From positions 372,001 through 436,000 of the forward strand of contig NZ_JAGWCB010000006.1 of assembly GCF_020387415.1 (NCBI RefSeq): 64,000 nucleotides of DNA, in the 5' to 3' direction. The translations under genes were made by a program, and so were the position numbers. Below, piece after piece: positions 37,924 to 48,342 of the stretch (the first letter of the stretch is position 1; every line of letters begins with the position of its first letter). The notes below the pieces were generated by a model. That model did not search any database and was not told the origin of the DNA. It saw nothing but the letters and a program-made list of their open reading frames with translations. The DNA comes from Ideonella benzenivorans. GTDB taxonomy: Bacteria; Pseudomonadota; Gammaproteobacteria; Burkholderiales; Burkholderiaceae_C.

Positions 37924-38522
37924 GCGAGCGTTCCCCTTTCCCTGGCCTGATGCCGGGCTTCGACTTTCTGCAGGGGCTGGTGCGCCAGGCCGGCGCGGCG
38001 CTGCCGGGCATGAACCAGTGGATCGCCCCGACGCTGGACCCCGAGGAGCTGGACAAGCGCATCAGCGAGCTGCGCACCGTGCAGTTCTGGCTGGAGCAGA
38101 ACGCCCGCCTGCTGGCGACCACGATCCAGGCGCTGGAGGTGCAGCGCATGACGCTGGCCACCCTGAAGACGATGAACGTCTCGATGGGCGATCTGCGCGA
38201 TGCGATGTCGATCCCGCCCGTGCCGGCGGCGGACGAGCCGGCCTCTGCGCCGGCTGCGGCGGCGGCCGAGACCGAGCCGCCTGCGGCCCCGCCGGCCGGC
38301 ATGGTGGACCCGATGCAGTGGTGGGGCGCGCTGACCCAGCAGTTCGGCCAGATCGCCGCGCAGGCGATGCAGGAGGCCCCGTCCGCTGCGCCGGCGGCGG
38401 CCCGTCCCGCCCCGGCGCCCCGGCCGGCCGCCCCTCGGCCCGCGCCGGCGGCGGCGCGCCCGGCGGCCCCCGCCGCACCGCGCAAGGCCGCGCCCCGCAA
38501 GAAGCCGGCGGCGCCGCGCTGA
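37920..38522 (+). CDS. phaM: PhaM-family polyhydroxyalkanoate granule regulator
   Basis: A 200-residue protein whose N-terminal part has the PhaM signature PTLDPEELDKRISELRTVQFWLEQN and TTIQALEVQRMTLATLK (written in two pieces), and whose C-terminus is a long Ala/Pro/Arg/Lys tail (APRKAAPRKKPAAPR) expected to bind DNA. In Ralstonia eutropha PhaM activates PHB synthase and tethers granules to the nucleoid. Its presence implies the strain stores PHB. The start overlaps the TraB gene stop by 4 bp. Confidence 0.9.
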   Translation: MSERSPFPGLMPGFDFLQGLVRQAGAALPGMNQWIAPTLDPEELDKRISELRTVQFWLEQNARLLATTIQALEVQRMTLATLKTMNVSMGDLRDAMSIPPVPAADEPASAPAAAAAETEPPAAPPAGMVDPMQWWGALTQQFGQIAAQAMQEAPSAAPAAARPAPAPRPAAPRPAPAAARPAAPAAPRKAAPRKKPAAPR

Positions 38523-38531
38523 GCCGCGCCC

Positions 38532-39719
38532 ATGAGCGCCACCGTTGCGCTGGCCTGTCTGCAAGGCCATGCCACCCATCCAGATCCGCACATGGCCCTG
38601 GCCCTGGCGGCGGCCCAGATCGACGCCCAGCGTGCGTCCCGGCCGGGCTTCCAGCCGACGCTGGCCCTGTTCTACCTGACCGAGGCCTATGCGCCGCAGG
38701 CCGAAGCCCTGTTGGCCGACGTCGGCCAACGCTGGCCCGGGGTGCAGGTGGTCGGCACCGTGGGGGTGGGCATTGCCGCTGGCGATGCCGAGTACTGGGA
38801 CGAGCCGGCCCTGGCCCTGTTGCTGATGGACCTGCCGCGGGCGCAGTTCAGCGTCTTCAGCGGTCGCCAGCCGCTGGCCGAAGCCGGGGCGGCTGCGCAC
38901 TGGACCGCGCTGGTCCATGCCGACCCGAGCACGCCCGACCTGGCCGAGCTGATCGGCGAGCAGGCCGGCCGCACCGGCAGCGGCCAGCTCTTCGGCGGCG
39001 TGGCCAGTGCCCGCAATCGGCCGGTGCAGCTGGCCAACGGCGTCTACACGGGCGGGTTGTCCGGGGTGGCCTTCGGGCCCTGGGTGGGTCTGGTCTCGCG
39101 CATGACACAGGGCTGCCAGCCGATCGGGCCGACCCGCAGCATCACCGCCTCGGAACGCAACCTGGTGTTTGAACTGGACGGGCAGCCGGCGCTGCCGGCC
39201 CTGCTGGCCGATCTGGACATGCCCCTGGACCCGCCCGAACAGCTGGTGCGCCGGCTGCGCAGCGTGCTGGCCGGGCTGACCGATGCCGGCGACCGGCCCC
39301 ATGGCCGGGGCGGGCAGTTCGGCATCGACACCCGGGTGCGCCACCTGGTCGGGCTGGACCCGGCGCGGCAGGCCGTGGCCGACTGGGTCATGACCGGCCA
39401 GCAGCTGGCCTTCTGCCAGCGGGACGTGGCCGCCGCCCGGCGCGACCTGGTGCGGCTGTGCGCCGAGATCCGCGAGGAACTGGCCGGTGACGAGGCCGAG
39501 GGCGTGCCGCCCCGCCAGCTGGTGGGCGCGGTCTACATCAGCTGCACCGGCCGCGGCGGGGCGCATTTCGGCGGGCCCTCGGCCGAGCTGCAAATCCTGC
39601 GCCATGCGCTGGGCGAGGTGCCGCTGGTGGGCTTCTTCGCCGCTGGCGAGATCACCGGCCACCACCTGGTCAGCTACACCGGGGTGCTGACCGTGTTCAC
39701 CACCGAGGCGGGGGCATGA
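38532..39719 (+). CDS. FIST-domain sensory protein
   Basis: A 395-residue cytoplasmic protein with FIST N (residues about 30-220; VQVVGTVGVGI, GGVASARNRPVQLANGVYTGGLSG) and FIST C (about 250-390; GAVYISCTGRGGAHFGGPS, PLVGFFAAGEIT) domains. FIST proteins are predicted small-molecule (amino acid) sensors often tied to signalling. The LysR gene downstream overlaps by 4 bp (ATGA), so the pair may act together. Confidence 0.88.
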   Translation: MSATVALACLQGHATHPDPHMALALAAAQIDAQRASRPGFQPTLALFYLTEAYAPQAEALLADVGQRWPGVQVVGTVGVGIAAGDAEYWDEPALALLLMDLPRAQFSVFSGRQPLAEAGAAAHWTALVHADPSTPDLAELIGEQAGRTGSGQLFGGVASARNRPVQLANGVYTGGLSGVAFGPWVGLVSRMTQGCQPIGPTRSITASERNLVFELDGQPALPALLADLDMPLDPPEQLVRRLRSVLAGLTDAGDRPHGRGGQFGIDTRVRHLVGLDPARQAVADWVMTGQQLAFCQRDVAAARRDLVRLCAEIREELAGDEAEGVPPRQLVGAVYISCTGRGGAHFGGPSAELQILRHALGEVPLVGFFAAGEITGHHLVSYTGVLTVFTTEAGA

Positions 39720-40597
39720 CCCCGCCGCGCATTCCGCCGATCCAGTGCCTGCTGGCCTTCGAGGCCCTGGCCCGGCGGCGCAGCGTCACCGCCGCGGGCG
39801 ACGAGCTGAACGTCACGCCCAGTGCCGTCAGCCACCGCATCCGCCAGCTGGAGGGCCAGCTCGGGCTGAAGCTGTTCGGGCGCGACTTCAGCCTCACCGC
39901 CGAAGGGGCGGCCTACCTGGGCCCCGTGCGCGAGGGCCTGCGGGCGCTGCAGCAGGTGCCCGGGCAGGCACCCGAGACGAGCCGCTCGGTGCGACTGCGG
40001 CTGGCGGTCACGCCCACCTTCTCGCGCCAAATCCTGCTGCCGCGGCTGGCGCTGTTCCGCCATGCCTACCCGGAGATCGAGCTGATCCTGCAGGTCGCCA
40101 TTCCGCTGGCCGACGTGAAGGCCGAGGAGGCCGACCTGGAGGTGCGCTACGGCACCGGCCCCTATTCGGATGTGGAGCATGTGCGCATCCTTCGCGACGA
40201 GGTCACGCCGGTCTGCAGCGCCGACTACCTCAACGAGTTCGGCCCCTTCGGGGGCTTCGACACCATCGAGGACGTGACGCGGGCCCATTTGATCCGCAGC
40301 CCGCTGGACCCCTGGAGCACCTGGTTCCAGGCCCACGGCATCGCCCTGCCCGAACCGCGGGTGGGCTCGCAGTTCAACGACGTGGGCCTGGTGCTGGATG
40401 CGGCCGCGGCCGGCTTCGGGGTGGCGCTGATGCGCACCAAGCTGGGCCTGAGCTGGGTCGACTCGGGCCGCCTGGTGCGGCTGTCGCCGCAGGCCGTGCC
40501 CTCGCCCTGTGCCCACCACCTGTGCTGGAAGCCCGGGGCGATGGAACGCTGGGAGTGCGCGGCCTTCGTGGACTGGCTGAAGGCCGCCCTGGCCTGA
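39716..40597 (+). CDS. LysR-family (GcvA-like) regulator
   Basis: A 293-residue regulator of the GcvA branch. It starts RIPPIQCLLAFEALARRRS, has the recognition helix TPSAVSHRIRQLE and the effector domain with LRLAVTPTFSRQILLPRL. It is translationally coupled to the FIST gene upstream and is followed 203 bp later by the lctP-glcDE operon, which it could control. The 40598-40799 gap contains a palindrome and a hairpin. Confidence 0.9.
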   Translation: MTPPRIPPIQCLLAFEALARRRSVTAAGDELNVTPSAVSHRIRQLEGQLGLKLFGRDFSLTAEGAAYLGPVREGLRALQQVPGQAPETSRSVRLRLAVTPTFSRQILLPRLALFRHAYPEIELILQVAIPLADVKAEEADLEVRYGTGPYSDVEHVRILRDEVTPVCSADYLNEFGPFGGFDTIEDVTRAHLIRSPLDPWSTWFQAHGIALPEPRVGSQFNDVGLVLDAAAAGFGVALMRTKLGLSWVDSGRLVRLSPQAVPSPCAHHLCWKPGAMERWECAAFVDWLKAALA

Positions 40598-40622
40598 ACC
40601 GGGCTGAGGCCGCGGACAGCGC

Positions 40623-40638
40623 CGAGGGTTAACCCTCG
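40623..40638. promoter_or_regulatory. 16-bp perfect palindrome upstream of lctP
   Basis: CGAGGGTTAACCCTCG, 26 bp after the LysR stop and 161 bp before the lctP ATG. It looks like an operator for a dimeric regulator. No known operator is matched. Confidence 0.45.
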
Positions 40639-40717
40639 AATTGAAGAACTCTCACGCGCACGGGCAGCAAGTTTCAATCGCCCCGGCGCCCCGTCTCCCT
40701 ACAGTCGCAGCCGATTC

Positions 40718-40752
40718 GCGGCCCCGGGCGTGCCAACCATGCCCGGGGCCGC
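40718..40752 (+). promoter_or_regulatory. 12-bp-stem hairpin in the lctP leader region
   Basis: GCGGCCCCGGGC/GCCCGGGGCCGC with an 11-nt loop, ending 47 bp before the lctP ATG. No U run. It may be a leader structure or a terminator of upstream transcription. Confidence 0.5.
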
Positions 40753-40799
40753 GGTGTGTTCGCAGGCACGACGACCGCAGTACGAGGAGACAACCCACC

Positions 40800-42458
40800 A
40801 TGGCCTGGCAGCAGATCTACGACCCCTTCGGCAACATGTTCATCTCCACCGCCCTGGCCGCCGTGCCGGTGGTGGTGATGCTGGTGGCCCTGGGCTTCTT
40901 CCACATCAAGGCGCACATTGCCGCCGGCATGGGCCTGGCCGCCGCCTTTTGCGTGGCCGTGTTCGGCTACGGCATGCCGGCCGGCCTGGCCGGCAACGCG
41001 GCCATCTACGGCGGGCTGACCGGCCTGCTGCCGATCGGCTGGATCGTTCTGAACATCATCTTTCTGCAGCAGCTGGCCGAGGGCAACGGCAGCTTCAAGG
41101 TGCTGCAGGACTCGCTCTCGGGCATCACCGAGGACCGGCGCCTGCAGCTGCTGCTGATCGCCTTCTGCTTCGGCGCCTTCTTCGAGGGCGCGGCGGGCTT
41201 CGGCACCCCGGTGGCGGTGACGGCCGGCATCCTGATCGGCCTGGGCTTCTCGCCACTGGCCGCCTCGGGTCTGTCGCTGATCGCGAACACCGCGCCGGTG
41301 GCCTTCGGCGCGCTGGGCACACCGGTCATCACGCTGGCCAAGGTGCATGGCTACGACCTGATGGAAGTGACGGCCATGATCGGCCGCCAGTTGCCCTTCT
41401 TCTCGCTGCTGGTGCCGTTCTGGCTGATCTGGGCCTTTGCCGGCCGCAAGGCGATGATGGAGATCTGGCCCGCCATCCTGGTGACCGGCCTGTCGTTTGC
41501 CATTCCGCAGTACCTGGTGTCGAACTTCATCGGCCCCGAGCTGGTGGACATCATCGCCGCGCTGGTGTCGATGGTGGCGCTGGTGAGCTTCCTGAAGGTC
41601 TGGCAACCCAAGAAGATCTGGACCTCGCCCTCGCTGAAGGGCCATGAGCAGGACGGCGGCGAGCCGCCGCGCCCCAAGACCATGGTGGCCTACAGCAGCC
41701 AGGAGCTGCTGCGCGCCTGGACGCCCTGGCTGATCCTGACGGTCTTTGTCTTCGTCTGGGGCCTGCCGCCGGTGAAGGACTACCTCAACAGCCTGTTCCT
41801 GGCCAAGTTCCCGATCGAGGGGCTGAACAACCTGGTCGAGAAGGTGCCGCCGGTTGTCAACAGCCCGCACAAGGAGGCGGCCGTCTATGTGCTGAACCTG
41901 CTGTCGGCCACCGGCACCGGCATCCTGCTGTCGGCCATCGTGGGCGCCTTCGTGATGGGCTACGGCCCGGTGGCCATCGTCAAGACCTTCCTGCGCACGC
42001 TCTGGCTGGTGCGCATGTCGCTCGTGACCATCGTGCTGATGCTGGCGCTGGGCACGCTGACCCGCTTCTCGGGCACCGACACCACGCTGGGCCTGGCCTT
42101 TGCCAACACCGGTGTGCTCTACCCCTTCTTCGGTACCCTGATGGGCTGGCTGGGCGTGGCGATGACCGGCTCCGACACCGCGTCCAACGTGCTGTTTGGC
42201 GGCATGCAGAAGGTGGCGGCCGACCAGCTGGGCCTGAACCCCAACCTGATGGGCGCGGCCAACAGCTCGGGCGGCGTGATGGGCAAGATGATCGACGCGC
42301 AGTCCATCGTCGTGGCCTCCACCGCCACCCGCTGGTTCAACCATGAAGGCGACATCCTGCGCTACGTGTTCTTCCACTCGGTGGCGCTGGCCTGTCTGGT
42401 GGGCCTGTTCGTGACGCTGCAGGCCTATGTGCCGCCGTTCACGCTGATGGTGCATTGA
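40800..42458 (+). CDS. lctP: L-lactate/glycolate permease family transporter
   Basis: A 552-residue inner-membrane proton symporter of the LctP/LldP/GlcA family. About 12-14 hydrophobic helices are visible, with family blocks GAFFEGAAGFGTPVAVTAG, GALGTPVITLAKV, FSGTDTTLGLAFANTG and AANSSGGVMGKMIDAQS. Being first in an operon with glycolate oxidase subunits it likely carries glycolate (GlcA role) and/or lactate. The ATG at 40800 has GAGGAG upstream; in-frame codons back to 40641 cover the hairpin and are rejected. Confidence 0.94.
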   Translation: MAWQQIYDPFGNMFISTALAAVPVVVMLVALGFFHIKAHIAAGMGLAAAFCVAVFGYGMPAGLAGNAAIYGGLTGLLPIGWIVLNIIFLQQLAEGNGSFKVLQDSLSGITEDRRLQLLLIAFCFGAFFEGAAGFGTPVAVTAGILIGLGFSPLAASGLSLIANTAPVAFGALGTPVITLAKVHGYDLMEVTAMIGRQLPFFSLLVPFWLIWAFAGRKAMMEIWPAILVTGLSFAIPQYLVSNFIGPELVDIIAALVSMVALVSFLKVWQPKKIWTSPSLKGHEQDGGEPPRPKTMVAYSSQELLRAWTPWLILTVFVFVWGLPPVKDYLNSLFLAKFPIEGLNNLVEKVPPVVNSPHKEAAVYVLNLLSATGTGILLSAIVGAFVMGYGPVAIVKTFLRTLWLVRMSLVTIVLMLALGTLTRFSGTDTTLGLAFANTGVLYPFFGTLMGWLGVAMTGSDTASNVLFGGMQKVAADQLGLNPNLMGAANSSGGVMGKMIDAQSIVVASTATRWFNHEGDILRYVFFHSVALACLVGLFVTLQAYVPPFTLMVH

Positions 42459-42505
42459 GCCCCGGCCGGCGGCGGGATTGCCCCGCTGCCGGTCACAGCT
42501 GTTTT

Positions 42506-42550
42506 GCCGGCCGGGCCGCGTTCTTCCCGAGGGCAACGCGGCCGGCCGGC
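42506..42550. promoter_or_regulatory. Long GC hairpin between lctP and glcD
   Basis: Arms GCCGGCCG-G-GCCGCGTT and AACGCGGC-CGGCCGGC pair over 16 bp with one bulged G; loop 12 nt. It lies 47 bp after lctP and 71 bp before glcD. No U run. It could uncouple lctP from the glc genes (attenuation or mRNA processing). Confidence 0.5.
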
Positions 42551-42621
42551 GGTACAGTCTTCGGGCTGCCCATGTCCCCTTTGTCGGCCCTTCGGCCTTG
42601 CCGAACCGCCCCCTCGCGACC

Positions 42622-44133
42622 ATGACGACCCCCCTGACCGACGCTCCTTCCGTTTCCCTGGACTCCGCCCGGCGTGCGGCGCGCCAGTCCGAGGTGGTGG
42701 CCGCACTGCGCGCGGTGCTGCCGGCCCACGCGCTGCTGTGGCAGAGCGAGGAGACCACTCCCTACGAATGCGATGGCCTGTCGGCCTACCGCCAGCGCCC
42801 GCTGGCCGTGGCCTTGCCGGAAACCGGCGAGCAGGTGGCCGCGGTGCTGCGGGTCTGCCATGGCCTGGGCGTGCCGGTGGTGGCGCGCGGCGCGGGCACC
42901 GGCCTGTCCGGGGGCGCCATGCCCAACCCGGACGGCGTGACGCTGGCGCTGGCCAAGTTCAACCGCATCCTGCAGATCGACAAGGCCAGCCGCACCGCGG
43001 TGGTCCAGTGCGGGGTGCGCAACCTCGCGATCTCCGAGGCGGTGGCGCCGCTGGGCCTGTACTACGCGCCCGATCCGTCCAGCCAGATCGCCTGCACCAT
43101 CGGCGGCAACGTGGCCGAGAACTCCGGCGGCGTGCACTGCCTGAAGTACGGCCTGACCGTCCACAACGTGCTCAAGGTCAAGGGCTACACCGTCGAGGGC
43201 GATCCGGTGGAGTTCGGTGGCGACGCCTACGACGCGCCCGGCCTGGACCTGCTGGCGGTGCTGGTGGGCAGCGAGGGCATGCTGGCCGTGGTCACCGAGG
43301 TCACGGTCAAGCTCACGCCCAAGCCGCAGGTGGCGCGCTGCATCATGGCCAGCTTCCCGGACGTGCGTTCGGCCGGCGAGGCGGTGGCCGCCATCATCGC
43401 CGCGGGCATCATCCCGGCTGGGCTGGAGATGATGGACCAGCCGATGACCGCCGCGGTCGAGGCCTTCGTCCATGCCGGCTATGACCTGGATGCGGCCGCC
43501 ATCCTGCTGTGCGAGAGCGACGGCACGCCCGAGGAGGTGGAGGAGGAGATCGGCCGCATGAAGGCGGTGCTGGCCGGGGCCGGCGCCACCCGCATGGAGG
43601 TCAGCCAGGACGAGGCCCAGCGCCTGAGGTTCTGGAGCGGGCGCAAGAACGCCTTCCCGGCCTCGGGCCGCATCAGCCCCGACTACATGTGCATGGACTC
43701 GACCATCCCGCGCAAGCGCCTGGCCGACATCCTGCTGGCCATCGCCGAGATGGAGAAGAAGTACCAGCTGCGTTGCTGCAACGTCTTCCACGCCGGCGAC
43801 GGCAACCTGCACCCGCTGATCCTCTTCGATGCCAACGACCCCGACCAGCTGCACCGCTGCGAGCTGTTCGGCGCCGACATCCTGGAGACCAGCGTCGCGA
43901 TGGGCGGCACGGTGACGGGCGAGCACGGCGTGGGCGTGGAAAAGCTCAACTCGATGTGCGTGCAGTTCAGCCCCGAGGAGCGGGCCCAGATGTTCGCCCT
44001 CAAGGCCGCCTTCGACCCGGCGGGCGGACTCAACCCCGGCAAGGTGTTGCCCACGCTGCACCGCTGCGCCGAATACGGCCGCATGCATGTGAAGAAGGGC
44101 CTGCTGCCCTTCCCCGAACTGGAGCGTTTCTGA
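42622..44133 (+). CDS. glcD: Glycolate oxidase FAD subunit
   Basis: The 503-residue FAD-binding subunit that oxidises glycolate (or D-lactate) to the 2-oxo acid. VAO-type FAD motif VPVVARGAGTGLSGGA, CTIGGNVAENSGG and the C-terminal GTVTGEHGVG are present. The catalytic/metal histidines lie in HAGDGNLHPL. The ATG at 42622 is the family start. The operon continues with glcE (2-bp gap), two LrgAB genes and glcF. Confidence 0.95.
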   Translation: MTTPLTDAPSVSLDSARRAARQSEVVAALRAVLPAHALLWQSEETTPYECDGLSAYRQRPLAVALPETGEQVAAVLRVCHGLGVPVVARGAGTGLSGGAMPNPDGVTLALAKFNRILQIDKASRTAVVQCGVRNLAISEAVAPLGLYYAPDPSSQIACTIGGNVAENSGGVHCLKYGLTVHNVLKVKGYTVEGDPVEFGGDAYDAPGLDLLAVLVGSEGMLAVVTEVTVKLTPKPQVARCIMASFPDVRSAGEAVAAIIAAGIIPAGLEMMDQPMTAAVEAFVHAGYDLDAAAILLCESDGTPEEVEEEIGRMKAVLAGAGATRMEVSQDEAQRLRFWSGRKNAFPASGRISPDYMCMDSTIPRKRLADILLAIAEMEKKYQLRCCNVFHAGDGNLHPLILFDANDPDQLHRCELFGADILETSVAMGGTVTGEHGVGVEKLNSMCVQFSPEERAQMFALKAAFDPAGGLNPGKVLPTLHRCAEYGRMHVKKGLLPFPELERF

Positions 44134-44135
44134 CC

Positions 44136-45248
44136 GTGGCCGAACCAACGACCCAAGACCCCGCGCTGGCCCATCTGGTGGCCCGGGTGCGCGAGGCGGC
44201 CGAGCGCCACCAGCCGCTGTGCATCCGCGGCAGTGGCAGCAAGGATTTCTACGGCGGCCCGCTGATCGGCGAGCCGCTGCCGCTGGGCGAGCTGCGCGGC
44301 ATCTCGTCCTACGAGCCCACCGAGCTGGTGGTGACGGCGCGCGCCGGCACACCGCTGGCCGAGCTGGAGGCCGCGCTGGCCGAGAAGGGCCAGTGGCTGC
44401 CCTTTGAGCCGCCGCGCTTCGAGCACACGCCGGGCGGCGGCACCGTGGGCGGCATGGTGGCGACCGGCCTGGCCGGCCCGGCGCGGGCCGCGCTGGGCGG
44501 GGTGCGCGACTACATGCTGGGCGCCACGCTGCTCAACGGCCAGGCCGAGCTGCTGAGCTTCGGCGGCCAGGTGATGAAGAACGTGGCCGGCTACGACGTC
44601 TCGCGCATGCTGGCGGGCTCCATGGGCGTGCTGGGCGTGATCTGCGAGGTCTCGCTCAAGGTGCTGCCGGTGCCGCCGGCCAGCGCCACGCTGCGCTTCG
44701 ACCTGGACCAGGTCAATGCCCTCAAGCGGGTCAACGACTGGGCCGGCCAGCCGCTGCCGCTGCAGGCCAGCGCCTGGTGGGAAGGCGCGCTGGTCGTCCG
44801 CCTGGGCGGCGCCGCGGCGGCGGTCGGGTCGGCGGCGCAGAAGCTGGGCGGCGAGCTGATCGACCCGGCCCTGGCGGCGCGCTTCTGGACGGATCTGCGC
44901 GACCAGCGCGACGAGTTCTTCAGCACCGCCCGCGCGGCGGTGGCCGACGGGGCCGTGCTCTGGCGTTTGTCGGTGGCGCCCACCGCGCCCAAGATCGCCC
45001 TGGCCGGCGACACTCTGATCGAGTGGGGCGGCGGTTGCCGCTGGCTGGTGAGCCGCGACAGCGCCGAGACCGTGCGCGCCGCCGCGCAGGATGCGCGCGG
45101 CCATGCCACCGCCTGGTGGGGCGGCGAGCGCGGCGGCGAGGTCTTCAGCCCGCTGTCGCCGGCCCTGCTGCGCATCCACCACCGGCTCAAGCAGGCCTTC
45201 GACCCGGCGGGCATCTTCAACCGCCAGCGCCTGCACCCGGCGTTCTGA
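44136..45248 (+). CDS. glcE: Glycolate oxidase FAD-binding subunit GlcE
   Basis: A 370-residue subunit related to GlcD but lacking the full catalytic C-terminal domain. FAD-binding sequences IRGSGSKDFYGG, TARAGTPLAELEA and GGGTVGGMVATGLAGP, plus MKNVAGYDVSRM, match GlcE. The GTG at 44136 lies 2 bp after the glcD stop. GlcE, GlcD and GlcF form the membrane-associated enzyme. Confidence 0.93.
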   Translation: MAEPTTQDPALAHLVARVREAAERHQPLCIRGSGSKDFYGGPLIGEPLPLGELRGISSYEPTELVVTARAGTPLAELEAALAEKGQWLPFEPPRFEHTPGGGTVGGMVATGLAGPARAALGGVRDYMLGATLLNGQAELLSFGGQVMKNVAGYDVSRMLAGSMGVLGVICEVSLKVLPVPPASATLRFDLDQVNALKRVNDWAGQPLPLQASAWWEGALVVRLGGAAAAVGSAAQKLGGELIDPALAARFWTDLRDQRDEFFSTARAAVADGAVLWRLSVAPTAPKIALAGDTLIEWGGGCRWLVSRDSAETVRAAAQDARGHATAWWGGERGGEVFSPLSPALLRIHHRLKQAFDPAGIFNRQRLHPAF

Positions 45249-45260
45249 CGGAGACCGCCC

Positions 45261-45635
45261 GTGCCGCTGCTGCAAGGCTTCGCCCTTCTGCTGCTGAGCC
45301 AGTCGGCCGGCGAGGCGCTGGTGCGCCTGCTGGGCCTGCCGTTGCCGGCGCCGGTGCTGGGCGCGGTGCTGCTGCTGGGCCTGCTGCGCTGGGCGCCGCT
45401 GCAGGGGCCGGTGGGCGTGGCGGCCAACGGCCTGCTGGGCCATCTGTCGCTGCTGTTCGTGCCGGTGGGCGTGGGTGTCATCACCCATCTGGACCTGCTG
45501 GGCGCCTATGGCGTGCACATGCTGCTGGCCATCGTGCTGTCCACCTGGCTGGGCCTGGCGGTGACGGCGCTGGTGCTGCGCGCGCTGCTGCCGGCCGGCG
45601 ACGAGGGTGACGAGATCGGGGAGACGGGCCGATGA
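45261..45635 (+). CDS. LrgA/CidA-family membrane protein
   Basis: A 124-residue four-helix membrane protein. The LrgA pattern is visible: hydrophobic start GFALLLLSQSAGE, LPLPAPVLGAVLLL, then LLFVPVGVGVI. It overlaps the LrgB gene by 4 bp. LrgA/LrgB pairs were first named as holin/antiholin-like proteins, but Bacillus PftAB carries pyruvate and the plant fusion PLGG1 is the chloroplast glycolate/glycerate transporter. Location inside the glycolate oxidase operon points to glycolate or glyoxylate/glycerate transport. Confidence 0.88.
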   Translation: MPLLQGFALLLLSQSAGEALVRLLGLPLPAPVLGAVLLLGLLRWAPLQGPVGVAANGLLGHLSLLFVPVGVGVITHLDLLGAYGVHMLLAIVLSTWLGLAVTALVLRALLPAGDEGDEIGETGR

Positions 45636-46351
45636 GCTCCTTCGTCGAACTCTGGGTCTACCTGTCCGCCACGCCGCTGTTCGGCCTGACCGCGACCGTC
45701 TCGGCCTATGTGCTGGCGCAGATGATGAGCCACCGGCTGGGCCACCCGCCGCTGGCCAACCCGGTGTTGTGGACGGTGCTGGCCCTGTCGCTGCTGTTGC
45801 TGCTCACCGGCACCTCCTACCCCAGCTACTTCTCCGGTGCGCAGTTCATCCACTTCCTGCTGGGCCCCGCGGTGGTGGCCCTGGCCTGGCCCATGTGGCA
45901 GCGCCGGGCCCAGCTGCGCGCCCGCTGGGTGCCGCTGCTGCTGGCGGCGCTGACCGGCGGGGCGGTGGCCGCGCTCAGCGCGGTGTTGATCGGCCATGCG
46001 CTGGGCCTGCCGCGCGAGGTGCTGGCCTCGCTGGCGCCCAAGTCGGTCACCGCGCCGGTGGCCATGGGCATTGCCGAGCGCCTGGGGGGCATTCCCGCGC
46101 TGGCGGCGGTGGCGGCCCTGATCACCGGCCTGACCGGCGCGCTGACCGGCAAGTTCCTGTTCGACGCCCTGGGCGTGCGCAGCCAGGCGCCCCGCGGTTT
46201 TGCGCTGGGCACGGCCGCCCATGGCATCGGCGCGGCGCGCGCCCTGCAGGAGCATCCCGAGGCCGGGGCCTACGCCGGCCTGGCCCTGGGGCTGCAGGCC
46301 TTGCTGGCGGCGCTGCTGCTGCCGCTGGCCGCGCGCTGGCTGGCCTTCTGA
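45632..46351 (+). CDS. LrgB/CidB-family membrane protein
   Basis: A 239-residue membrane protein with about seven helices. LrgB signatures are HFLLGPAVVALAWPMW, LAPKSVTAPVAMGIAE and GTAAHGIGAARAL. It is the partner of the preceding LrgA-like protein. The pair lies between glcE and glcF, so it is not a general lysis-control system placed by chance: codon usage and spacing fit the operon. Confidence 0.9.
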   Translation: MSSFVELWVYLSATPLFGLTATVSAYVLAQMMSHRLGHPPLANPVLWTVLALSLLLLLTGTSYPSYFSGAQFIHFLLGPAVVALAWPMWQRRAQLRARWVPLLLAALTGGAVAALSAVLIGHALGLPREVLASLAPKSVTAPVAMGIAERLGGIPALAAVAALITGLTGALTGKFLFDALGVRSQAPRGFALGTAAHGIGAARALQEHPEAGAYAGLALGLQALLAALLLPLAARWLAF

Positions 46352-46373
46352 ATCGACGACCGAGTTTTCTCTC

Positions 46374-47663
46374 ATGCAAACCCATCTCGCCCCCGAATTC
46401 GCCGGCACGCCCGAAGGCGAGGCCGCCGAGGCCATCCTGCGCCAGTGCGTGCACTGCGGCTTCTGCACCGCCACCTGTCCCACCTACCAGCTGCTGGGGG
46501 ACGAGCTCGACGGCCCGCGTGGCCGCATCTACCTGATGAAGCAGGTGCTCGAAGGCGCGCCGGTGACCGTCACCACCCAGGCCCACCTGGACCGCTGCCT
46601 GACCTGCCGCAACTGCGAAAGCACCTGCCCCAGCGGCGTGCAGTACGGCCGGCTGGTCGAGATCGGCCGCCAGGTGGTGGACGAGCGGGTGCAGCGCCCG
46701 GCCGGCCAGCGCGCGGTGCGCTGGCTGCTGCGCGAGGGGCTGACCTCCTCGGCCTTCGCGCCGGCCATTGCCGTGGGCCGCGCGCTGCGCCCGTTGCTGC
46801 CGGCCAAGCTGCAGGCCAAGGTCACCCCGGCCCCTGGCAAGGATGCCCACCGCTGGCCGACCCGCAGCCACCCGCGCAAGGTGCTGATGCTGATGGGCTG
46901 CGTGCAGCCCACGCTGATGCCCAACATCAACTCGGCCACCGCGCGGGTGCTGGACGCCGCGGGCATCCAGACCGTGGTGGCCGACGAGGCCGGCTGTTGC
47001 GGCGCCATCCGCGACCACCTGGGCGACCACACCGGGGCCCTGGCCGACATGCGGCGCAACATCGACGCCTGGTGGCCGATGGTCGAGGGCCTGACCGAAA
47101 CCGGCCAGGTCGAGGCCATCGTGATGAACGCCAGCGGCTGCGGCCTGTCGGTGAAGGAATACGGCCTGGCCCTGGCGGCCGACCCGGCCTACGCCGAGAA
47201 GGCCCGCCGCATCAGCGCCCTGACCCGGGATGTGAGCGAACTGCTGCCCGACCTGGTGTCGCGGCTGCAGCCGCTGCTGGCCCGTGCCCGCGCGCGCCGC
47301 AACGAGCCGGCCGACGCGCCGCCGCTGCCGCTGGCCTACCACCCGCCCTGCACGCTGCAGCATGGCCAGCGCCTGCGCGGCGGGGTGGAGACCCACCTGG
47401 CCGCGCTGGGCTTCGACGTGCGCACCGCGCCGGTGGACGCCCACCTGTGCTGCGGCTCGGCCGGCACCTACTCGGTGCTGCAGCCCGCGCTGTCGACCGC
47501 GCTGCGCGACCGCAAGCTCAAGGCTCTGGCGCCGGTTCGGGCCGAGACGGTGGTGTCGGCCAACATCGGCTGCATCCAGCACCTGGCCTCCGCCAGCGAG
47601 CGGCCGGTGCGGCATTGGATCGAGGTGCTGGACGAGGCACTGGACGAACGCCCCCGGGCCTGA
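46374..47663 (+). CDS. glcF: Glycolate oxidase iron-sulfur subunit
   Basis: A 429-residue subunit with two 4Fe-4S motifs near the N-terminus, CVHCGFCTATCPTY and CLTCRNCESTCPSG, and two CCG (cysteine-rich) domains (DEAGCCGAI, LCCGSAGTYSVLQP). It passes electrons from GlcDE to the quinone pool. The ATG at 46374 starts 22 bp after LrgB; earlier in-frame codons overlap LrgB. Confidence 0.95.
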   Translation: MQTHLAPEFAGTPEGEAAEAILRQCVHCGFCTATCPTYQLLGDELDGPRGRIYLMKQVLEGAPVTVTTQAHLDRCLTCRNCESTCPSGVQYGRLVEIGRQVVDERVQRPAGQRAVRWLLREGLTSSAFAPAIAVGRALRPLLPAKLQAKVTPAPGKDAHRWPTRSHPRKVLMLMGCVQPTLMPNINSATARVLDAAGIQTVVADEAGCCGAIRDHLGDHTGALADMRRNIDAWWPMVEGLTETGQVEAIVMNASGCGLSVKEYGLALAADPAYAEKARRISALTRDVSELLPDLVSRLQPLLARARARRNEPADAPPLPLAYHPPCTLQHGQRLRGGVETHLAALGFDVRTAPVDAHLCCGSAGTYSVLQPALSTALRDRKLKALAPVRAETVVSANIGCIQHLASASERPVRHWIEVLDEALDERPRA

Positions 47664-47688
47664 CAGGGGCGAGGCCGGCCCCTACACT
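47660..47688 (+). promoter_or_regulatory. Promoter of the GST gene
   Basis: CTGACA (47660-47665), a 17-bp spacer and TACACT (47683-47688). It overlaps the glcF stop codon and starts 62 bp before the GST ATG. Confidence 0.5.
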
Positions 47689-47721
47689 GGTCGGCCCTCC
47701 TCTTTGCACTGGACCCTCGCC

Positions 47722-48342
47722 ATGCAACTCATTGGCATGCTGGATTCGCCCTATGTGCGCCGCGTCGCGGTGTCGCTGCAGCTGCTGGGCATTCCGTTCG
47801 AGCACCATTCCATCTCGGTCTTCCGTCAGAAGGCCGAGTTCGAGGCCATCAACCCGCTGGTCAAGGCGCCCACGCTGGTGACCGATGACGGCACGGTGCT
47901 GATGGACTCCAGCCTGATCCTGGACCATTTGCCGCTGATCGTCGGCACCCCGCTGGCCCGGCCGCTGATGCCCAGCGAGCCGGTCGCCGCGCGTCAATGC
48001 CTGCGCGTGCTGGGCCTGGCCCTGGCCGCCTGTGAGAAGACGGTGCAGATCGTCTACGAGATGCAGCTGCGCCCGCCCGAGCACCGGCACGGCCCCTGGC
48101 TGGACCGGGTCAGCGAGCAGGCTCAGCGCGCCTTTGCGCTGCTGGAGGCCGAGATGACGGCCCACCCGCTGGCCATGGGCACGCCCCACATCCAGCAGGA
48201 CGGCATCACGGCCGCGGTGGCGTGGAGCTTTGCCAACCTGGTGCTGCCGGGCCGCTTCGATGCGCTCGCCCACCCGGCACTCGCCGCCCACACGGCCGAG
48301 GCCGAGGGGCTGGCGGCCTTCCGCGCCTGTCCGCAAACCTGA
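47722..48342 (+). CDS. Glutathione S-transferase
   Basis: A 206-residue cytosolic GST. The thioredoxin-like N-terminal domain has the active-site region MLDSPYVRRVAVSL (Ser after the first strand), the cis-Pro block KAPTLVTDDG and the DSSLIL glutathione-binding motif. The C-terminal helical domain contains DGITAAVAWSF. Preceded by its own promoter. Substrate unknown. Confidence 0.9.
   Translation: MQLIGMLDSPYVRRVAVSLQLLGIPFEHHSISVFRQKAEFEAINPLVKAPTLVTDDGTVLMDSSLILDHLPLIVGTPLARPLMPSEPVAARQCLRVLGLALAACEKTVQIVYEMQLRPPEHRHGPWLDRVSEQAQRAFALLEAEMTAHPLAMGTPHIQQDGITAAVAWSFANLVLPGRFDALAHPALAAHTAEAEGLAAFRACPQT

What the first reader, a model, noticed from the sequence alone, without database searches (positions are those of the whole stretch)
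45261..46351. LrgA-LrgB pair embedded inside the glycolate oxidase operon
Between glcE and glcF lie LrgA and LrgB homologues, in phase with the operon. In plants the LrgAB-fusion PLGG1 carries glycolate and glycerate; in Bacillus PftAB carries pyruvate. The context here independently suggests a bacterial glycolate/glycerate or glyoxylate carrier. The operon also starts with LctP, so the two systems may import different acids or work in opposite directions.
Basis: partly seen in the sequence, partly recalled or inferred. Interest (0 to 1): 0.6.

Follow-up and report, generated by a model that had tools for sequence, protein, structure and literature searches.

The report
Likely glycolate carrier in glycolate operon
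Two small membrane-protein genes of a family once thought to control cell death sit inside this bacterium's glycolate-burning operon, and they keep company with glycolate genes in many relatives and several different layouts, so they most likely move glycolate or similar small acids across the cell membrane; this rests on gene neighbourhoods, not on a transport test.

Summary
In detail: one strand reads LysR - lctP - glcD - glcE - lrgA - lrgB - glcF, with gaps of 2 to 22 nt or a 4-nt overlap from glcD on. It is not unique. In 60 family genomes, one per genus, close LrgB relatives occur in 24, and 19 of those lie within 3 kb of glcD and/or glcF; 0 of 14 distant LrgB copies are linked. Layouts differ: glcE-lrgAB-glcF, glcD-lrgAB, glcEF-lrgAB, glcDEF-lrgAB, in four branches of the LrgB tree whose joining is unresolved. 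Outside the order the sample gave one loose case. The genome's second lrgAB has a CidR-like regulator, the classical kind. Best reading: LrgAB is a two-subunit, gradient-driven carrier for glycolate and related small acids, beside or instead of LctP. Substrate, direction and energetics are inferred. Lactate is the main alternative: a few relatives sit in lactate-type operons. A RuBisCO link is not supported; none was found in this genome. No paper listed in my searches reports this linkage, but the library is partial. A testable new member of a known carrier kind.

The parts
39716..40597 (+). LysR-type regulator, GcvA-like, upstream of the operon
   Evidence: Pfam HTH_1 and LysR_substrate; best NCBIfam model GcvA 216.6 bits, below its cut-off of 288. 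Relatives at 59-77% identity stand before glcD-lrgAB or lctP-glcDE-lrgAB in other genera.
40800..42458 (+). lctP, lactate/glycolate permease family
   Evidence: Pfam Lactate_perm 511 bits; TIGR00795 514 bits (cut-off 341); GlcA equivalog 484 bits and L-lactate permease equivalog 522 bits, below their cut-offs of 1121 and 918.
42622..44133 (+). glcD, FAD subunit of glycolate dehydrogenase (start codon uncertain; open frame begins 42478)
   Evidence: FAD_binding_4 and FAD-oxidase_C; GlcD models best but below equivalog cut-offs.
44136..45248 (+). glcE
   Evidence: NCBIfam GlcE 492 bits, cut-off 284.
45261..45635 (+). lrgA, small LrgA/CidA-family subunit, GTG start 12 nt after glcE
   Evidence: Pfam LrgA 7e-22; cut-offs of the S. 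aureus LrgA and holin-like models not reached.
45632..46351 (+). lrgB, LrgB/CidB-family carrier subunit, start overlaps lrgA stop by 4 nt
   Evidence: Pfam LrgB 1.4e-72; TIGR00659 192 bits, below cut-off 249.7; AlphaFold2 model, mean pLDDT 84.4.
46374..47663 (+). glcF, iron-sulfur subunit, 22 nt after lrgB
   Evidence: NCBIfam GlcF 653 bits, cut-off 333.

Best explanation
LrgA and LrgB form one two-subunit membrane carrier that lets glycolate, and probably other small 2-hydroxy or 2-oxo monocarboxylates such as lactate, cross the inner membrane down their gradient, delivering substrate to the GlcDEF dehydrogenase (or letting excess out). LrgB is taken as the transport core and LrgA as its obligatory partner. 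LctP at the head of the operon would be an ion-coupled importer, and LrgAB a facilitated second route that can stand in for LctP in relatives without it. Shown here: gene order, recurrence of the linkage, different layouts, several branches of the LrgB tree. Inferred: complex formation, substrate, direction and lack of ion coupling, by analogy with the characterised relatives PftAB, S. aureus LrgAB, YohJK and plant PLGG1.
For: 19 of 24 close relatives (55-100% identity) lie within 3 kb of glcD or glcF, against 0 of 14 distant LrgB copies in the same 60 genomes (Fisher p = 2.4e-6, not corrected for shared ancestry). Of 80 named loci 51 are glc-linked (36 of the 56 with enough flanking DNA): 41 glcD-lrgAB, 8 glcE-lrgAB-glcF, 2 glcEF-lrgAB. 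Linked genes fall in four branches of a 60-row LrgB tree: main clade 100/100, Hydrogenophaga-type glcEF clade 100/99, an f8 pair 100/100 and one f32 row. 13 of 19 linked genomes have no LctP-family match at E<=1e-40. Beside glcD-lrgAB stand a GcvA-like LysR, purU and a class-V aminotransferase distantly like glyoxylate aminotransferases. In G376, of the same class but another order, lrgAB follows a GlcC-like regulator and lies across from TRAP genes, malate synthase G, a GlcG-like gene, glcD, glcE and glcF. This genome's other lrgAB has a CidR-like regulator instead. Passages read: PftAB is a hetero-oligomeric, gradient-driven pyruvate carrier (PMC5626966); S. aureus LctP, LldP and LrgAB all carry pyruvate (PMC12632267).
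Against: No transport data for this clade. 5 of 24 close relatives are unlinked, and 57 of 60 genomes have GlcF while 24 have close LrgB, so the pair is dispensable. G038 has no GlcD or GlcF match at the cut-offs used, yet keeps an lrgAB that falls in the glcEF-lrgAB clade. The glcE-glcF junction also takes a methyltransferase gene in relatives, so an insert there need not mean a shared pathway. A lactate-type operon holds lrgAB in L110, and a lactate-type neighbourhood in L076. LctP and lrgAB show no avoidance (p = 0.59). Linkage is almost confined to the order: by the listed coordinates 0 of 94 LrgB-bearing genomes outside it have LrgB within 3 kb of GlcF, and 5 of 5 plasmid-borne relatives inspected are not glc-linked. 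The backbone of the tree is unresolved, so the number of separate gains is not shown.
Confidence: 0.62

Rival explanations
1. LrgAB is mainly a lactate (or pyruvate) carrier. It sits with GlcDEF because GlcD-type enzymes also act on D-lactate or because the same regulator governs both acids.
For: L110 has a LutA/LldE-like gene, LutB/LldF (466 bits, cut-off 445), a GlcD-like dehydrogenase, lctP and lrgAB in a row; L076 has LutA-like and LutB (448 bits) genes a few kb upstream of lrgAB. Known bacterial LrgAB carry pyruvate (passages). GlcD here is below the GlcD equivalog cut-offs.
Against: Only 2 loci of this type were noticed among 80 named (not searched for systematically), against 51 with glc genes. 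purU, the GcvA-like LysR and the aminotransferase point to glyoxylate/glycine.
Confidence: 0.2
2. LrgAB is an outlet: it vents glycolate or glyoxylate when GlcDEF or downstream steps are overloaded, while LctP does the import.
For: YohJK lowers internal 3-hydroxypropionate (PMC7642389 passages); PLGG1 carries glycolate and glycerate (passages; export of glycolate from plastids is recalled). Both carriers stand in one operon here. The S. aureus authors suggest separate importers and exporters of pyruvate.
Against: In 13 of 19 linked genomes no LctP-family importer was found, so an outlet alone would leave glycolate entry unexplained; other importer families were not searched. No RuBisCO match in this genome as an internal glycolate source.
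Confidence: 0.1
3. The pair is a CidAB/LrgAB holin-type cell-death or envelope system that happens to sit in the operon.
For: Family names and S. aureus LrgA pore activity (PMC8805020 passages and abstract start).
Against: Cut-offs of autolysis-modulator and holin-like models are not reached. The genome has another lrgAB with a CidR-like regulator. Repeated linkage to one dehydrogenase in several layouts.
Confidence: 0.04
4. Passenger: the pair lies there by descent and operon drift, with no role in glycolate metabolism.
For: The glcE-glcF junction accepts other genes; 5 of 24 close copies are elsewhere.
Against: Layouts change (glcD-lrgAB without glcEF, glcE-lrgAB-glcF without glcD, glcEF-lrgAB) yet a glc partner stays; linkage also in well-separated LrgB clades.
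Confidence: 0.04

Closest known systems
PftAB (YsbAB) of Bacillus subtilis, pyruvate facilitator
   Same: Two-gene LrgA+LrgB pair; hetero-oligomeric gradient-driven carrier of a C3 monocarboxylate (PMC5626966, passages).
   Different: Controlled by LytST and induced by pyruvate; here an operon with a LysR gene upstream and glycolate genes. Substrate here untested.
PLGG1 / AtLrgB, plastid glycolate/glycerate carrier
   Same: LrgA and LrgB domains, glycolate as substrate (PMC4368765, PMC6993116, PMC8805020, passages).
   Different: One fused plastid protein in plants; here two separate bacterial genes. No PLGG1 sequence was compared here. No glycerate link seen.
S. aureus LrgAB together with LctP and LldP
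   Same: One organism uses LctP-type permeases and LrgAB for the same acid (PMC12632267, passages).
   Different: Substrate pyruvate. Separate loci there is recalled, not read.
E. coli YohJK
   Same: Two-gene pair proposed as a 3-hydroxypropionate exporter (PMC7642389, passages); LrgA/LrgB homology is recalled.
   Different: YieP-regulated; proposed export of another acid.
E. coli glc operon with permease GlcA
   Same: Glycolate dehydrogenase genes plus an LctP-family permease; a reference in PMC12632267 names a glycolate permease linked to the E. coli glc operon; gene order recalled.
   Different: No lrgAB inside (recalled).
Cupriavidus necator glcD-kch-glcE-glcF
   Same: Glycolate dehydrogenase operon with an extra membrane gene (PMC7486775, passages).
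   Different: The main text has no occurrence of LrgA or LrgB; whether C. necator has lrgAB after glcF was not checked.

Membership tests
LrgA/LrgB (CidA/CidB) protein families | Pfam LrgA and LrgB domains over cut-off, in adjacent genes | tested here: met
   77.6 bits (cut-off 28) and 244 bits (cut-off 25); 4-nt overlap.
CidB/LrgB autolysis modulator, LrgA antiholin, holin-like subfamily (NCBIfam) | curated equivalog or subfamily score | tested here: not met
   LrgB 192 of 249.7 bits, 165 of 267, 108 of 264; LrgA 46 of 136, 43 of 124, 43 of 112.
CidR-regulated cidAB/lrgAB locus | CidR-type LysR gene beside the pair | tested here: not met
   The LysR upstream of the window operon is GcvA-like and the 25 models shown for it do not include CidR. 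The genome's other pair at C13:102321-102974 has a LysR whose best model is CidR, 250 bits, below the cut-off of 415.
PftAB pyruvate facilitator | LytST two-component genes beside the pair (adjacency recalled; regulation from PMC5626966) | tested here: not met
   None among the eight genes tested from 39716 to 48342.
PftAB pyruvate facilitator | carries pyruvate down its gradient | not testable with these tools
   needs transport assays
PLGG1-type glycolate/glycerate carrier | LrgA and LrgB fused in one chain | tested here: not met
   two open frames, 124 and 239 aa
PLGG1-type glycolate/glycerate carrier | transports glycolate and glycerate | not testable with these tools
   needs transport assays; the genomic context supports glycolate only
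CPA/AT carrier superfamily | fold like ASBT, NhaA, SLC9 | tested here: inconclusive
   Foldseek best E 1.8. Second look: SLC9C1 Z 5.5, rmsd 4.2 over 160 residues; ASBT homologues Z 5.1-4.0; NTCP 4.2; NHA2 4.2; NhaA 4.0; but an unrelated ABC protein also has 4.2, and all are under the tool's trust level. PMC8396727 (passages) places LrgB there.
GlcDEF glycolate dehydrogenase | GlcE and GlcF equivalog scores | tested here: met
   492 bits (cut-off 284) and 653 bits (cut-off 333)
GlcDEF glycolate dehydrogenase | GlcD equivalog score | tested here: not met
   756 of 897 and 493 of 568 bits; GlcD is the best model all the same

The most novel reading that the evidence does not exclude
A Burkholderiales subfamily of LrgAB is the bacterial counterpart of plant PLGG1: a dedicated two-subunit glycolate carrier, recruited to glycolate dehydrogenase operons several times, and in many Comamonadaceae part of a glycolate-to-glyoxylate-to-glycine module (glcD, lrgAB, GcvA-like LysR, purU, class-V aminotransferase).
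Probability: 0.4. Interest if true: 0.62.

Novelty: new member of a known kind. Interest (0 to 1): 0.5.

Why it matters
Glycolate is an abundant exudate of photosynthetic microbes (abstract start of PMC11323563). In the family sample 57 of 60 genomes have GlcF but only 23 of 60 an LctP-family permease, so the entry route is often unknown; this names a likely one for a good share of them. It would also tie a family still annotated as 'autolysis modulator' or 'holin-like' to a metabolic substrate, and give a bacterial system in which PLGG1-type transport can be studied by simple genetics.

Tried and rejected
RuBisCO/photorespiration link: PF00016 has no match in this genome and matches in 24 of 60 family genomes; 12 of 24 genomes with close lrgAB have it, and 10 of 19 linked ones (Fisher p = 0.28 and 0.26), so not supported. 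A published table (PMC7895386, passage) gives PF04172 fewer copies in Calvin-cycle genomes (0.32) than in others (0.48), which also speaks against a general link.

Mutual exclusion of LctP and lrgAB: 8 both, 16 lrgAB only, 15 LctP only, 21 neither, p = 0.59; no exclusion.

Linkage beyond the family: in the order sample (250 genomes, LrgB in 103 at E<=1e-20) I saw, comparing listed coordinates by eye, LrgB near GlcD outside the family in G217, G297 and G267; GlcF was not searched in that sample and the GlcD table was cut off, so this is a lower bound. In the phylum sample (398 genomes, LrgB in 112 at E<=1e-30, of which 94 outside the order) 0 of 94 have LrgB within 3 kb of GlcF by the listed coordinates, also compared by eye; G376 has lrgAB about 10 kb away in a glc locus. 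Of 18 regions fetched from outside the order (15 of another class, 3 of the same class) no neighbour cluster occurs in more than two (in L155 my gene finder called nothing but lrgAB).

Solved structures: no sequence relative in the PDB copy (LrgB best E 0.92; LrgA 0.75). Foldseek gave nothing significant.

Literature: nine searches. Listed in full: 9 papers; 1; 10; 7; 2; 8; listed in part: 42 (15 of 49, none of the 15 holds LrgB), 17 (20 of 290), 81 (20 of 239). No title or abstract start listed reports lrgAB in a glc operon; the two papers that hold LrgB and glcD are Acinetobacter transcriptome papers that I did not open. I read passages only, of PMC7895386, PMC5626966, PMC8396727, PMC7486775, PMC7642389, PMC8805020, PMC4368765, PMC11323563, PMC12632267 and PMC6993116. 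The library lacks most subscription papers and the original PLGG1 paper, so absence in print is not shown.

Rows dropped: one 20-bit LrgB match (G040:C280) was left out of the 14 distant copies. Before the 125-row tree I dropped five duplicates (L004, L005, L009, L010, L018), split or stop-bearing lrgB (L022, L025, L030), short or contig-end rows (L037, L104, L123, L130, L132) and any under 200 aa or with an inner stop. The 60 rows of the careful tree were picked by me. Five of the family loci are the same loci as named ones, so the two sets overlap.

Full report
What is there. On the + strand the window reads LysR (39716-40597), lctP (40800-42458), glcD (about 42622-44133), glcE (44136-45248), lrgA (45261-45635), lrgB (45632-46351), glcF (46374-47663). 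Family searches support the names: Lactate_perm 511 bits, FAD-oxidase C plus FAD_binding_4 for GlcD, GlcE 492 bits (cut-off 284), LrgA 77.6 bits (28), LrgB 244 bits (25), GlcF 653 bits (333). GlcD models are the best hits of the GlcD frame but stay below their equivalog cut-offs, and LctP reaches neither the GlcA nor the L-lactate permease equivalog, so strict substrate calls cannot be made from these models. From glcD to glcF the genes are 2, 12, -4 and 22 nt apart, and a simple scan shows no promoter or terminator pattern there.

Is it unique? No. I searched 60 genomes of the same family, one per genus, for LrgB, GlcF, GlcD, LctP and RuBisCO. LrgB matched in 33 of 60, GlcF in 57 (E<=1e-30), GlcD in 58 (E<=1e-100), the LctP family in 23 (E<=1e-40). 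Of 24 genomes with a close LrgB (55-100% identity; in two of them, G003 and G005, the gene is split, and in G041 it holds a stop), 19 have it within 3 kb of glcD and/or glcF: G000 (the window), G001, G002, G006, G008, G009, G011, G014, G015, G016, G025, G026, G040, G041, G042, G050, G054, G057, G059. The five without are G003, G005, G020, G039, G052; in G020 the pair still follows purU and the LysR. The 14 more distant LrgB copies in these genomes (33-50% identity) are linked in 0 of 14; Fisher p = 2.4e-6. Relatives share ancestry, so the p value overstates independence; the trees below address that.

How the linkage looks. Four layouts occur. (A) glcE-lrgA-lrgB-glcF: window, G011, G059, G026 (glcD elsewhere), G541, and eight named loci, among them Roseateles saccharophilus DSM 654 (L083), Rubrivivax pictus (L087, the G011 locus), Paucibacter (L086), Piscinibacter (L115), Leptothrix (L137) and Aquariibacter albus (L119, where lrgA was not recovered by the search). 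L083, L087 and L115 also have lctP in front, as in the window. (B) glcD-lrgA-lrgB: 41 of 80 named loci (Polaromonas, Rhodoferax, Variovorax, Curvibacter, Comamonas granuli and others) and 13 family loci, with glcF elsewhere in the family genomes where it was found. (C) glcE-glcF-lrgA-lrgB: Hydrogenophaga (L133), L140, G057, G041, G108. (D) glcD-glcE-glcF-lrgA-lrgB: G267, G297, and with one gene between glcD and glcE in G217 (an ion channel by Pfam) and G615 (same size, not tested). In all, 51 of 80 named loci are linked, 36 of the 56 that have enough flanking DNA. In layout B a LysR at 59-64% identity to the window's LysR is seen before glcD in 22 of 41 named and 6 of 13 family loci, purU (PurU 343 bits, cut-off 286) in 26 of 41 and 7 of 13, and a class-V aminotransferase in 7 of 41 and 9 of 13; many loci are cut by contig ends, so these are lower bounds (my counts). 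The aminotransferase's best models are BhcA and PhnW, far below their cut-offs, so glyoxylate as its substrate is inference.

How many origins. In a 125-row LrgB tree the four layout labels need 20 changes (shuffled mean 53.2), and linked versus unlinked needs 18-19 (shuffled mean 38.7, least 31). In a careful 60-row tree the main clade (22 linked, 6 unlinked rows) has support 100/100, the Hydrogenophaga-type clade (4 linked, 1 unlinked) 100/99, the G267/G297 pair 100/100, and G217 stands apart; the label needs 11 changes, well-supported branches force at least 7, and 0% of bootstrap trees need only one. The order in which these clades join each other and unlinked rows is unresolved, so gains cannot be told from losses; the differing layouts make several gains likely but do not prove them. 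A further case is G376, of the same class but another order: lrgA-lrgB follow a GntR-type gene whose best model is GlcC (263 bits, cut-off 301) and precede a TRAP binding protein; on the other strand lie TRAP genes, malate synthase G (1177 bits, cut-off 565), a GlcG-like gene (named by recall), glcD, glcE and glcF.

Where it is absent. By listed coordinates 0 of 94 LrgB-bearing genomes of the phylum sample outside the order have LrgB within 3 kb of GlcF. Five plasmid-borne relatives (Burkholderia, Caballeronia, two Bradyrhizobium, Sulfitobacter) show no glc gene in the incomplete gene tables of their surroundings. Even in the family GlcF is far commoner than close lrgAB (57 against 24 of 60).

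Same-genome contrast. The genome has one more LrgB (C13, 39% identity to this one). Its LysR neighbour matches CidR best (250 bits, below the cut-off of 415). So a pair of the classical type is present separately, and the window pair is a different branch with a different regulator upstream.

What it does. The pair most likely carries glycolate, with lactate and related acids as possible co-substrates. Reasons: the recurrent partner is the glycolate dehydrogenase in changing layouts; 13 of 19 linked genomes have no LctP-family match, and there the pair is the only carrier I saw beside the glc genes (four of these genomes are under 90% complete, and other importer families were not searched). 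Characterised relatives are carriers of pyruvate (PMC5626966; PMC12632267), glycolate/glycerate (plant PLGG1, as stated in passages of PMC8805020 and PMC4368765) and 3-hydroxypropionate (PMC7642389). PftAB was found to follow the pyruvate gradient in both directions, which is why I propose a facilitator. In S. aureus LctP-type permeases and LrgAB carry the same acid; that is the nearest model for having both in one operon. The AlphaFold2 model of LrgB is good (pLDDT 84.4), but its structural neighbours, led by SLC9, ASBT and NhaA types, stay below a trustworthy score; this fits, and does not prove, the published CPA/AT placement (PMC8396727).

What speaks against or limits it. The lactate reading is serious: L110 has LutA/LldE-like, LutB, a GlcD-like dehydrogenase, lctP and lrgAB in a row, and L076 has LutA- and LutB-like genes upstream. 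The glcE-glcF junction also accepts a methyltransferase gene (L005, L041, L042). In L078 (Xenophilus azovorans), L101 (Variovorax ginsengisoli), L073 and L094 purU and lrgAB are neighbours without glcD between them. G038 lacks GlcD and GlcF at the cut-offs used but keeps a pair that falls in the glcEF clade. The link to RuBisCO is not significant and this genome has no match; a published table even has LrgB rarer in Calvin-cycle genomes (PMC7895386). Direction, coupling and substrate range are untested.

Novelty. Nine library searches gave no listed paper that describes lrgAB inside or beside glc operons; three of the lists were partial and the library itself is partial. The proteins belong to a known kind of carrier; the new part is the predicted substrate class in bacteria, its wide occurrence in Comamonadaceae and Sphaerotilaceae, and the co-conserved module.

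Noticed in passing
L005:5549-6226, L041:5951-6637, L042:5543-6190: Methyltransferase-type genes of one cluster (Pfam tested for L005) lie right after glcE in three family genomes, at the same junction that takes lrgAB in the window.
   Followed up: partly
L008, L010-L013, L015, L018, L019 and many of L063-L142: purU (formyltetrahydrofolate deformylase) and a GcvA-like LysR are conserved before glcD-lrgAB; in L073, L078, L094 and L101 purU is the neighbour of lrgAB with no glcD between.
   Followed up: partly
L110:133-8714: A lactate-type operon (LutA/LldE-like, LutB/LldF, GlcD-like dehydrogenase) that ends in lctP-lrgA-lrgB.
   Followed up: partly
   Followed up: no
L022 (G005), L030 (G003), L025 (G041): lrgB appears split or holds an inner stop; two of the five unlinked close copies are affected. 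Could be decay or assembly error.
   Followed up: no
L059:4936-5862 and L162:3921-4841: An ion-channel gene (Pfam Ion_trans, tested for L059) sits between glcD and glcE, as the kch gene does in Cupriavidus necator according to PMC7486775; a same-sized untested gene is in L162.
   Followed up: partly
window 37950-39719; L006:10897-12921: The two genes before the LysR in the window have homologues directly upstream of glcD in G059 (clusters 14 and 28), so the neighbourhood looks inherited together; the names PhaM-like and FIST-like are recalled only.
   Followed up: no
G000:C13:102321-102974 (L002, L036): A second, distant lrgAB with a divergent CidR-like LysR in the same genome.
   Followed up: yes
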